Positions 3,752-9,629 of a DNA stretch of 64,000 nt are shown here, piece after piece. The position numbers were made by a program, and so were the translations under genes. How positions within the stretch are numbered: the first letter of the stretch is position 1; the number at the start of each line of letters is the position of its first letter. This DNA is from Streptomyces erythrochromogenes (GTDB lineage Bacteria > Actinomycetota > Actinomycetes > Streptomycetales > Streptomycetaceae): contig NZ_CP108036.1 of assembly GCF_036170895.1 (NCBI RefSeq), forward strand, positions 5,511,501 through 5,575,500, given 5' to 3'. The notes beneath the pieces are model-generated. The model worked only from the letters and a program-made list of their open reading frames with translations, was not told the DNA's origin and searched no databases.

Positions 3752-3864
3752 CAGCCCCGCCGGCGTTTGAGGCGCGGGGTCCGGGGCGGAAGCCCCAGGG
3801 AACCCGGCTCCGCCCGGCCCCGCCCCTCAAACTCCCCCGGCTACCGCCGGGAGGTGCCCCTGGC
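3752..3864. repeat. GC-rich dispersed repeat, copy A (both halves)
   Basis: Intergenic copy of a streptomycete-type dispersed GC-rich repeat. The left half carries CAGCCCCGCCGGCGTTTGAG and then a gcggggtccgggg block. The right half carries CAAACTCCCCCGGCTACCGC and ends gaggtgcccctgg. Parts recur at 7734-7781 (inverted), 37849-37920 and 44028-44113. It lies between two convergent genes and can fold into long hairpins. Just before it, the segment CCCCGGCGGGCCAGTAG is duplicated in tandem at about 3669-3703. Confidence 0.7.
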
Positions 3865-6304: not shown

Positions 6305-6329
6305 CTTCTCCCGCCGCCCGCTCGTGAAT
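6301..6329 (+). promoter_or_regulatory. Candidate promoter for the WxL-like gene
   Basis: TTGACT (6301-6306), overlapping the previous stop codon, and GTGAAT (6324-6329) are separated by 17 bases. This is a plausible housekeeping promoter upstream of the GTG at 6376. Confidence 0.4.
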
Positions 6330-6375
6330 GGCCCCCTGCGCGGGGCTCGGCGCGAGGGAACCCAGGGGGCGGGCA

Positions 6376-7713
6376 GTGCGAACACGGGCGCGGAACCGGA
6401 GATGGTCGGCAGCCGTCGGCATGGCCGCACTCGCGGCCACGGCCGGGGGCGCCCTCGGCGCACCCGCCGCGGCAGAGGGCGAGACGCCCCCCGGACAGGT
6501 GGACTTCCCCACACAGTGCCTGGCGCCCCAGGAAGCCGGAATCCCGCCCGCCGACGGGCAGACCACCGCCCGGATCACCGTGGACGACCCGGCACCCCGG
6601 GTCGGCGACACCGTCACCGTGACCTACCAGGTGGTCAGGACCCCGGCCCTGAACCCGCTCGGCGGCGAACTCCCCGCCGACACGCTCACCCCGACCGGCC
6701 GGATCGTCCTGGCGGGCGCCCAGAGCGGCGAGGTCACCGTCGTCGGCGCCAAGCGCAACGACCCCGTCCCGGCCGGCGCGCCCCTCCCCGTCGCCACCAT
6801 GACCGGCACCTTCACCGTCACCGCGCCCGGCGAGATCACCCTGGCCCCGGGCGCCTACACCCTGCACACCGCCCACCTGCTCGGCCTCGACACCTCCTGC
6901 ACCGCCGCCGCCCCGGCCGCCGCACCCGTCTCCGCCCGCCTCACCGCCGCCGAACTGCCCACGGCCAACCTGCGCAGCGTCTTCCTCGCCGCCGCCCACG
7001 GAAAGCCCGGAGCCAAGGTCCGGGTCACCGCCGCCGGCTTCCCCCCGGGCGCCGCCGTGACCGTCGCCGGGCGAGCGGGCGCCGCCGAGACCGCCGACCG
7101 GGTGAGCGCCACCGCCGACGGCCTGGGCACGGCCGCCGTGGAGCTGCCGGTCACGGACCGGGCCACCACCGCTGTGGTCGCCTACCAGGGCGCGGCCTGG
7201 TCCGCGCGGCAGGGCTCCGGCCCGGCCGCGTACACGGTCGTCGACGCCGCCCCGCCGGCGTCCGGCACCCAGAAGGTCACCGCCACCGTCGAGCCGGGCG
7301 CGCTCGGCATGACCCAGGCGGGCGAGGCCATCACCCTCGGCGCGGTCCCGTACGGCGACGGAGGCGCCGCCCCCGGCCGGATCGGCACCGTGACCGTCAC
7401 CGACGCCCGCGGCGGCCCGGCCGGCTGGTCCCTGACCGGCAAGGTCACCGACTTCACCGGACCGGGCGGGATCCGCATCCCGGGCGCGTCCCTGTCCTGG
7501 ACCCCGTCGTGCGTGGCGGCCTCCGGCAGCCAGAGCCGCTGTACGCCGGGCAGTGCGGGCGTCGTCGGCCCGGAAGGCGCCCTCCTGGCCTCCACCCCGG
7601 ACGCCCCGCTGGTCGGCGGCACCTTCACGATCGACGCCGCCGTCACCCTGCACGTGCCGCCGTACACCCCGCCGGGCGCCTACACGGCGGTCCTCACGCT
7701 GACCTTGTCGTGA
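6376..7713 (+). CDS. Secreted WxL-like beta-sandwich protein
   Basis: 445 residues with a Sec signal peptide (MRTRARNRRWSAAVGMAALAA..., probable cleavage after an Ala-rich stretch near residue 33). The mature part is rich in Thr, Val, Ala and Gly with repeated beta-strand motifs. Its C-terminal third (from about residue 300) resembles a WxL-type domain: GALGMTQAGEAITLGAV, one LSWTPS and the final PPGAYTAVLTLTLS. GTG 6376 is chosen because AGGGGGCGGGC sits just upstream; ATG 6328 would add 16 residues. The stop overlaps the next start (GTGA), and the next gene encodes the DUF916-type partner that usually accompanies WxL proteins in wall-surface complexes. The ligand is unknown. Confidence 0.7.
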   Translation: MRTRARNRRWSAAVGMAALAATAGGALGAPAAAEGETPPGQVDFPTQCLAPQEAGIPPADGQTTARITVDDPAPRVGDTVTVTYQVVRTPALNPLGGELPADTLTPTGRIVLAGAQSGEVTVVGAKRNDPVPAGAPLPVATMTGTFTVTAPGEITLAPGAYTLHTAHLLGLDTSCTAAAPAAAPVSARLTAAELPTANLRSVFLAAAHGKPGAKVRVTAAGFPPGAAVTVAGRAGAAETADRVSATADGLGTAAVELPVTDRATTAVVAYQGAAWSARQGSGPAAYTVVDAAPPASGTQKVTATVEPGALGMTQAGEAITLGAVPYGDGGAAPGRIGTVTVTDARGGPAGWSLTGKVTDFTGPGGIRIPGASLSWTPSCVAASGSQSRCTPGSAGVVGPEGALLASTPDAPLVGGTFTIDAAVTLHVPPYTPPGAYTAVLTLTLS

Positions 7714-8687
7714 CCTTGATCCCGCCCCGTAAGGGGGCACCTCCCAGCGGTGGCCGGGGGAGTTCGAGGCGCGGGGTCCGGCCCGCCGCGCTCCTCGCGG
7801 CGGCCCCGGCCGCGCTGGGCCTCGTACTGCTGCCCGCCGGGACGGCATCGGCGGACGGCGGCCAGTGGTCCGTCCTGCCCGCCGCGAACACCGTGGGCCG
7901 GCGCCCGTACTTCTACCTCGCCGCCGCGCCCGGCCAGAGCGTCGCCGACGCCGTCACCGTCACCAACCGGACCGACGGCCCCCGCACCTTCCGCCTCTAC
8001 GCCGCCGACGCCTACAACACCGCCCGCGACGGCGGCTTCGCCCTGCGCGGGCCCGACGAGCCGCGCCGGGCCGCCGCCGCGTGGACGAAGCTCGACCGGG
8101 AGCGGGTGACCGTCCCCGCCGGGGGCACGGTCCGCGTCGGCTTCACCCTGGCCGTCCCCGACCGCGCGGAACCGGGCGACCACCCCGGCGCCGTCGTGGC
8201 CCTCGAAGAACGACCCGCCGCCGCAACGGCCGACGCCCGGGGGATCGGGGTGCAGCAGGCGGTTGCCGCGCGGCTGTACCTGCGGGTGACCGGCCCCACC
8301 GCGCCCGCCCTGGCCGTCCGGGACGTCACCGTGCACCGGCGCGGCGCCGCTGCGGAGGTCTCGTACACGCTCCACAACACCGGCAACCTCACCCTCCGGC
8401 CCCGGGCCACCCTCAGCGCCTCCGGAGCGCTCGGCCGCCGGCTGCTCGAACGCGGGCTCACCGGGCTGCCCGCCGAACTGCTGCCGGGTCAGGAAGTGCG
8501 CCTGCGGGCCCGCTGGGACGGCCCGCCCGCCGCGGAATGGACCCGGGTGACGGTGCGCGCGCGGTCCGACGGAACCACAGCTCAGGGGCGTGCCGCCTAC
8601 GCCGCGCACCCGCCGCTGACGACTCTGCTGGCCCTCACCGCGCTGGTCTGGTCGGCGCTGGGAGCCGCATCGGGGAGAATGGCCCGT
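7710..8687 (+). CDS. DUF916 (WxL-partner) membrane protein; frame stays open into era
   Basis: About 326 residues before era. There is a hydrophobic signal segment (about 26-50, ending ASADGG), then a beta-sandwich domain typical of DUF916/WxL peptidoglycan-interacting proteins (NRTDGPRTFRLYAADAYNT, PGDHPGAVVALEE), a second beta domain (SYTLHNTGNLTLRPRAT) and a C-terminal transmembrane helix (TTLLALTALVWSALGAAS). GTG 7710 overlaps the previous stop. Two oddities stand out. Residues 8-24 are encoded by a copy of the GC-rich dispersed repeat. There is also no stop codon after the helix: the frame continues through RMAR into Met1 of Era and ends only at 9629, giving a possible 639-residue product. 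Confidence 0.7.
7734..7781. repeat. GC-rich dispersed repeat, copy B (inside coding sequence)
   Basis: GGGGCACCTCCCAGCGGTGG followed by ccgggggagttcgaggcgcgg and gtccgg. This matches the reverse complement of the right half of the intergenic copies at 3752-3864 and 37849-37920. Here it lies within the N-terminal codons of the DUF916 gene and encodes a basic Gly/Ser/Arg stretch before the signal helix. Confidence 0.7.
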
Positions 8688-9629
8688 ATGAGCGATCGTT
8701 CCCCCGAGTCCACCGCCCCGCACCGTGCGGGCTTCGCCTGCTTCGTCGGCCGTCCCAACGCCGGCAAGTCGACCCTCACCAACGCACTCGTGGGCACCAA
8801 GGTCGCGATCACCTCCAACCGGCCGCAGACCACCCGCCACACCGTCCGCGGCATCGTGCACCGCCCCGACGCGCAGCTCGTCCTCGTCGACACGCCCGGT
8901 CTGCACAAGCCGCGCACCCTGCTCGGCGAGCGCCTCAACGACATCGTGCGCACCACCTGGGCCGAGGTCGACGTCATCGGCTTCTGCCTGCCGGCCGACC
9001 AGAAGCTCGGCCCCGGCGACAAGTTCATCGCCAAGGAGCTCGCGGGGATCAAGAAGACCCCCAAGATCGCCATCATCACCAAGACCGACCTCGTCGAGTC
9101 GAAGGTGGTGGGCGAGCAGCTCATCGCCGTCCACCAGCTCGCCGAGGAGCTGGGCTTCGAGTGGGCCGAGATCGTCCCCGTCTCGGCGGTCGGCGACAGC
9201 CAGGTCCAGCTGCTGGCCGACCTGATCGCGCCCCTGCTGCCGGAGAGCCCGCCGCTCTACCCCGAGGGCGACCTCACCGACGAGCCCGAGATGGTCATGG
9301 TCGCGGAGCTGATCCGCGAGGCCGCGCTGGAAGGCGTACGGGACGAGCTGCCGCACTCCATCGCCGTGGTCGTCGAGGAGATGATCCCGCGCGAGAACCG
9401 TCCGGCGGACCGCCCGCTGCTCGACATCCACGCCAACGTCTACATCGAGCGGCCGAGCCAGAAGGGCATCATCATCGGCCCGAAGGGCTCCCGCCTGAAG
9501 GAGGTCGGGATGAAGTCGCGCAAGCACATCGAGGCGCTGCTCGGGACCCCCGTCTTCCTCGACCTCCACGTGAAGGTCGCCAAGGACTGGCAGCGGGACC
9601 CCAAGCAGCTGCGCAAGCTCGGCTTCTGA
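8688..9629 (+). CDS. era: GTPase Era
   Basis: Essential GTPase that binds 16S rRNA and helps assemble the 30S subunit. It has 313 residues, the usual length. The G domain carries G1 GRPNAGKS (residues 21-28), G3 DTPG (about 71), G4 TKTD (about 129) and G5 VSAV. The C-terminal KH domain follows (about 215-300, with GIIIGPKGSRLKEVG). GAGAAT at 8675-8680 with a seven-base gap to ATG suggests its own leaderless promoter. The codon frame is continuous with the upstream membrane-protein gene. Confidence 0.95.
   Translation: MSDRSPESTAPHRAGFACFVGRPNAGKSTLTNALVGTKVAITSNRPQTTRHTVRGIVHRPDAQLVLVDTPGLHKPRTLLGERLNDIVRTTWAEVDVIGFCLPADQKLGPGDKFIAKELAGIKKTPKIAIITKTDLVESKVVGEQLIAVHQLAEELGFEWAEIVPVSAVGDSQVQLLADLIAPLLPESPPLYPEGDLTDEPEMVMVAELIREAALEGVRDELPHSIAVVVEEMIPRENRPADRPLLDIHANVYIERPSQKGIIIGPKGSRLKEVGMKSRKHIEALLGTPVFLDLHVKVAKDWQRDPKQLRKLGF

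What the first reader, a model, noticed from the sequence alone, without database searches (positions are those of the whole stretch)
7710..9629. Surface-protein gene with no stop codon, in frame with era
The DUF916-type gene (GTG 7710) has a complete domain layout ending in a transmembrane helix, but its frame continues without a stop through RMAR into Met1 of Era and closes only at 9629. If read through, it would make a 639-residue protein with Era tethered inside the membrane. era also seems to have its own leaderless promoter (GAGAAT, 8675-8680), so both free and membrane-linked Era could exist. A TGA in another frame overlaps the era ATG (ATGA), so a one-base change would restore an ordinary overlap.
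Basis: partly seen in the sequence, partly recalled or inferred. Interest (0 to 1): 0.75.

Follow-up and report, generated by a model that had tools for sequence, protein, structure and literature searches.

The report
Surface protein fused to Era
In one group of Streptomyces species a cell-surface protein gene runs without a stop codon into the gene for the ribosome-assembly enzyme Era, whose own promoter lies inside the surface gene, so these cells probably make both free Era and a membrane-anchored copy.

Summary
Frame 7710-9629 is open for 639 codons. Two searches gave 47 distinct loci with the same era promoter. In 29 of 47 an intact DUF916 (WxL-interacting protein) gene starts on the wxl stop codon and runs in frame through era; 0 of these 29 has a stop before era. 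The 47 form one side of a well-supported branch. The surface domain is under similar constraint (pN/pS 0.51) as in 10 unfused relatives (0.51), so it is probably translated, and the fusion is then made. Positions -39..-32 and -21..-2 before the era ATG are invariant in 47 of 47, also where the surface gene is lost: the footprint of a leaderless era promoter inside the transmembrane codons. Against a required function: 18 of 47 have broken, rearranged or lost the surface gene but keep promoter and era. The DUF916-Era fusion is already listed, uninterpreted, in a 2023 review (PMC10582724). New here are the nested promoter, the two predicted products, the frame-lock explanation and the repeated losses. 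No protein data were found.

The parts
6328..7713 (+). wxl: WxL-domain surface protein, 461 aa, directly upstream
   Evidence: ORF; PF13731 E 8.9e-6, residues 355-402
7710..9629 (+). Fused ORF, 639 codons: surface protein + helix + Era
   Evidence: no internal stop; same arrangement intact in 29 of 47 clade loci
7710..7853 (+). Start codon on the wxl stop (GTGA) and signal-peptide-like N-terminus (cleavage site judged by eye)
   Evidence: start codon overlapping the wxl stop in 29 of 29 intact loci; N-termini
7875..8195 (+). WxLIP peptidoglycan-binding domain (DUF916, PF06030)
   Evidence: E 9.4e-8 in the 639-residue protein, above the gathering score
8616..8672 (+). Predicted transmembrane helix, its right half encoded by promoter DNA
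   Evidence: best 19-residue hydropathy window 1.63; helix 301-318 in a low-confidence model
8649..8656 (+). TGGTCGGC, -35-like block of the era promoter
   Evidence: invariant in 47 of 47 loci, also without the surface gene
8667..8686 (+). Second invariant block with GAGAAT (8675-8680), -10 of the era promoter
   Evidence: 20 of 20 positions invariant in 47 of 47
8688..9629 (+). era, 313 aa, predicted leaderless start at 8688; single copy in the genome
   Evidence: NF000908 and TIGR00436 above cut-off; single copy; start site not mapped

Best explanation
A deletion in the ancestor of the Streptomyces lavendulae/virginiae clade joined the end of a WxL-interacting surface-protein gene to the era promoter and removed the surface gene's basic tail and stop (inferred from unfused relatives). 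Ribosomes that finish wxl restart at the overlapping start codon, export the surface domain, insert the helix and, meeting no stop, go on through era. The product has its DUF916 domain outside and Era inside the cell (inferred). Free Era, taken to be the form needed for ribosome assembly, is made from a leaderless mRNA whose promoter is embedded in the helix codons (promoter shown by footprint only; start not mapped). The fusion persists mainly because three constraints share the same bases: the promoter blocks and their spacing cannot change, the surface protein uses promoter-encoded hydrophobic residues for its helix, and only the frame continuous with Era provides them (inferred). The tethered Era is most likely a tolerated passenger rather than a required part.
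For: 29 of 29 intact loci fused with no stop. Surface-domain pN/pS 0.51 (0.43-0.60) in 29 fused loci, 0.51 (0.44-0.58) in 10 unfused; wrong frames 1.19 and 1.80. Promoter blocks 47 of 47, spacer 0 of 10, upstream 0 of 80 positions invariant. Helix only in the fused frame. One branch, support 100/99. Unfused relatives with helix, basic tail, stop and their own era promoter. Era single copy.
Against: No direct evidence of the protein or of either transcript. Only two length changes in the tail (70, 74, 81 codons), so frame conservation there rests on few events. Tail and helix evolve near neutrality (0.84, 0.68-1.01). In the basal L093 the helix does not use promoter residues, so the frame lock does not explain it. 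The unfused pN/pS covers the whole gene, the fused one the ectodomain only.
Confidence: 0.62

Rival explanations
1. The open frame is real but silent: the wxl-surface-gene transcript is rare or not translated to its end, so practically only free Era is made.
For: 18 of 47 loci have a broken, rearranged or lost surface gene with era promoter intact, so the fusion is dispensable; no expression data found.
Against: Surface-domain constraint equal to that of unfused relatives and clearly frame-specific; start codon on the wxl stop kept in 29 of 29.
Confidence: 0.22
2. The membrane-tethered Era has its own selected function, for example placing 30S assembly or a GTP/stress signal at the membrane near the wall-binding surface protein.
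For: Fusion kept in 29 loci over a deep clade; L069 and L106 stay in frame after large deletions; papers on membrane association of Era in streptococci exist (titles seen in the reference list).
Against: At least 8 changes of the intact state on the tree; after damage only 3 of 18 stay in frame, four use ATGA; frame lock explains persistence without function; the review holds that Era fusions are rare, probably for steric reasons.
Confidence: 0.14
3. Sequencing or assembly error at the junction.
For: A TGA overlaps the era ATG in another frame.
Against: 28 other intact loci with the same junction; 41 fusion proteins of 602-653 residues in the protein database (P0002-P0042).
Confidence: 0.01

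Closest known systems
DUF916-Era fusion in 'certain Streptomyces sp.' (InterPro architecture cited in PMC10582724)
   Same: Same two partners, same genus; the window's protein is almost certainly one of this kind (passages seen).
   Different: The review gives no mechanism and calls it difficult to interpret; the nested promoter, the conserved start overlap, the helix and the repeated losses are from this work.
YbeY-Era fusion of some Clostridia and RNase III-Era of some Rickettsia (PMC10582724)
   Same: An N-terminal partner (YbeY) or RNase III fused to Era (passage).
   Different: Those partners act in the cytoplasm on ribosomal RNA; here the partner is an exported surface protein with a membrane helix.
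WxLIP, the DUF916-DUF3324-helix protein of WxL clusters (PMC10599100)
   Same: DUF916 domain, C-terminal helix, neighbour WxL-domain gene.
   Different: No DUF3324 match by Pfam and Era instead of a short tail.
Unfused wxl-DUF916-era neighbourhood of other Streptomyces
   Same: Same gene order and -10 region before era.
   Different: Surface gene ends in a basic tail and stop before era, and 7 of 12 distinct loci have TACGTG at the -35 place.

Membership tests
DUF916-Era fusion | DUF916 and complete Era (GTPase + KH) in one ORF | tested here: met
   (PF06030 in 20 of 24 aligned proteins, the 20 full-length fusions among them by length; 4 rows are shorter Era proteins)
DUF916-Era fusion | made as one polypeptide | not testable with these tools
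   no proteome or footprint data for the clade found
WxLIP | DUF916 (PGBD) | tested here: met
   PF06030 E 3e-8
WxLIP | DUF3324 (HBD) | tested here: not met
   no Pfam match at E 0.001; a second beta domain is predicted at 188-298 in a low-confidence model, its kin untested
WxLIP | C-terminal transmembrane helix | tested here: met
   hydropathy only
WxLIP | gene beside a WxL-domain gene | tested here: met
   PF13731 in the gene ending at 7713
Era GTPase | curated Era models above cut-off, GTPase and KH domains | tested here: met
   NF000908 351 bits, TIGR00436 214 bits for the fusion
leaderless Streptomyces gene | promoter blocks placed for a start at the ATG | tested here: met
   blocks -39..-32 and -21..-2 invariant, 47 of 47
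leaderless Streptomyces gene | mapped transcription start at the start codon | not testable with these tools
   no start-site data for this clade; about 21% of S. coelicolor primary starts are leaderless (PMC4895711, passage)

The most novel reading that the evidence does not exclude
A whole Streptomyces clade makes a transmembrane form of the ribosome-assembly GTPase Era beside the free form, and the tethered form works: it links the state of the cell surface to 30S assembly.
Probability: 0.13. Interest if true: 0.85.

Novelty: new member of a known kind. Interest (0 to 1): 0.5.

Why it matters
It gives an explanation for an Era fusion that a review left uninterpreted. It is a clear case in which an essential gene's promoter, a membrane helix and a reading frame share the same bases, so a gene fusion can be locked in without needing a function. 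It also offers a natural test of whether Era works when tied to the membrane.

Tried and rejected
Sequencing error: rejected by relatives. WSALGAASGRMAR conserved as protein: rejected, because the DNA blocks are equally invariant in loci without an intact surface gene while the spacer between them varies. In-frame retention after damage as proof of function: not supported, 3 of 18. A second Era in the genome: not found; the other match has 32% identity over 115 residues at 27.6 bits and is presumably another GTPase. Unusual structure of the 7722-7792 repeat: fold z -0.44. Structure prediction of the fusion: low confidence (mean pLDDT 58.4, pTM 0.31), used only as weak support for a helix at 301-318; no fold search was made. 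SCO2539 (recalled as S. coelicolor era; the paper's table calls it an Era-like GTP-binding protein) occurs in one held paper, as a table row. Papers seen as passages: PMC10582724, PMC10599100, PMC4895711, PMC2000904; all others only as search listings. That no other held paper treats the fusion rests; the two other papers listed and the two others were not opened.

Full report
What is there. The window lies in a Streptomyces-like chromosome (G000, 8,598,676 bases in 2 contigs). The frame from GTG 7710 to the stop ending at 9629 has 639 codons and no internal stop. It encodes a signal-peptide-like start (by eye), a WxLIP peptidoglycan-binding domain (PF06030, residues 56-162), a hydrophobic stretch (303-321), the link GRMAR and a complete Era. 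The gene before it encodes a WxL-domain protein (PF13731), and its TGA overlaps the GTG. Era occurs once in the genome.

Is it an error? Among 61 genomes of the first relatives search the best foreign match to the surface part (73% identity, G012) also runs straight into era. Among 246 Streptomyces genomes 92 had a match at E 1e-40 or better. Fifteen listed matches reach the last residue before Era. Fourteen of them, the window's own included, run into era without a stop at the junction; the fifteenth (G119, L052) showed no era in the fetched locus. Two of the 14 are damaged further upstream (L048 a frame change, L049 a deletion). A scan of the collection with one genome per species for the peptide ASGRMARM matched 161 stretches and confirmed 38 loci, 37 titled Streptomyces and one 'Actinobacteria bacterium'. 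A DNA pattern in the 246 genomes hit 22, of which 18 have the clade's form. After removal of identical loci 47 remain. The protein database lists 41 fusions of 602-653 residues (P0002-P0042; the best 120 of 2470 hits were shown), some named GTPase Era in S. xanthophaeus or from S. virginiae and S. avidinii.

State of the 47 (details). Intact fusion: 29. All 29 have a GTG or ATG overlapping the wxl stop and an ORF from there through era. The distance from wxl stop to Era Met1 takes 21 values between 921 and 1542 nt, all multiples of three. Rearranged but in frame: 3. In L069 and L074 part of wxl is joined in frame to the end of the surface gene and Era, and L074 has lost the signal-peptide frame. 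In L106 the surface gene is reduced to 23 codons in front of Era. Link lost: 15. In four of these (L068, L085, L088, L095) a remnant ORF starts on the wxl stop and ends at the TGA of ATGA. No locus with an intact surface gene has a stop before era.

Evolution. In a tree of era from the 47 loci and 10 unfused relatives the 47 are one side of a branch with support 100/99. The intact state needs 12 changes, at least 8 forced by well-supported branches. The simplest history is one fusion followed by repeated losses. In seven unfused loci with era in reach, the surface gene ends with a helix, a basic tail and a stop about 30 to 420 nt before the Era match.

Promoter. Before the era ATG, positions -39..-32 (TGGTCGGC) and -21..-2 (GAGAAT at -13..-8) are invariant in 47 of 47. 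The spacer -31..-22 has 0 of 10 invariant positions and -120..-41 has 0 of 80. The first 18 coding bases are invariant too. In the 18 loci without an intact surface gene, taken alone, the blocks are equally invariant. This is what a -35/-10 promoter with its start at the ATG would leave. In unfused relatives the motif GA[GC]AATGG is kept at the same place, in 12 of 12 distinct loci looked at, and 7 of the 12 carry TACGTG at the -35 place. So the fusion event seems to have replaced the upstream half of the promoter by codons of the surface gene (inference). The names -35 and -10 rest on position and recalled consensus; no start site was mapped. GGGGAG about ten bases before the ATG might also allow internal initiation on the long mRNA (inference).

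Is the fusion protein made? pN/pS of the surface domain is 0.51 (bootstrap over codon columns 0.43-0.60) in 29 fused loci and 0.51 (0.44-0.58) over the whole surface gene in 10 unfused loci. The same DNA in the wrong frames gives 1.19 and 1.80. Variable sites by codon position are 119, 101 and 191 of 222. These are uncorrected Nei-Gojobori counts over non-independent pairs. The surface domain is therefore probably translated and useful, and as no stop exists its product must carry Era. Tail and helix are near neutral (0.84, 0.68-1.01), but hydrophobicity is kept in the fused frame: 1.15-2.22, median 1.94, against at most 0.41 in the other frames. The AlphaFold2 model is of low confidence and only hints at a helix at 301-318 with a loose link to Era.

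Why it persists. The right half of the helix is promoter DNA. In the two other frames that DNA reads GRRWEPHRGEWPV* or VGAGSRIGENGPYE. Promoter spacing forbids indels there, so a surface gene that uses these residues for its helix is bound to the Era frame. In 28 of 29 loci the best hydrophobic window includes them; in the basal L093 it does not. This frame lock is my inference; it accounts for conservation without a function for tethered Era. The tail before the block has only three lengths (70, 74, 81 codons), so frame conservation there rests on few events.

What is known. The review 'GTPase Era at the heart of ribosome assembly' (PMC10582724; passages) calls Era fusions extremely rare and names DUF916 in certain Streptomyces among recurrent ones that are difficult to interpret. 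The WxLIP paper (PMC10599100; passages) describes DUF916, DUF3324 and a transmembrane helix as one unit binding WxL and peptidoglycan; the protein here has the first and, by hydropathy, the third, and no Pfam match to the second. Searches joining Era with DUF916, membrane and Streptomyces listed no other paper that by its title concerns this fusion (not all listed papers were opened).

Verdict. The best-supported reading is two products from overlapping units, free Era from a nested leaderless promoter and a membrane-tethered Era as tolerated partner of a surface protein. The bold reading, a working membrane Era, stays open but has the repeated losses against it.

Noticed in passing
window 7724-7789: The signal-peptide region of the window's surface gene holds a copy of a dispersed repeat: 20 other places in the genome match this part of the query at E 0.001 or better (two of them in the window, near 3812 and 37868). 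It sits in frame; the nearest relative L065 (S. amritsarensis) shows no such stretch in its N-terminus.
   Followed up: partly
L069, L074 (same as L049): Deletions that join part of the WxL gene in frame to the end of the surface gene and Era, giving one long ORF; in L074 the signal-peptide frame is lost.
   Followed up: partly
L106 (same as L080, Streptomyces roseus): Surface gene reduced to 23 codons that still start on the wxl stop and run in frame into Era, so Era would carry a short N-terminal leader.
   Followed up: partly
window 8688-8705 and all 47 clade loci: The first 18 coding bases of era are invariant, synonymous positions included, which suggests a DNA or mRNA signal at the leaderless start.
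   Followed up: no
G000:C1:5349927-5350877 and 5023882-5024736: Two further relatives of the surface protein (41% and 47% identity) in the same genome.
   Followed up: no
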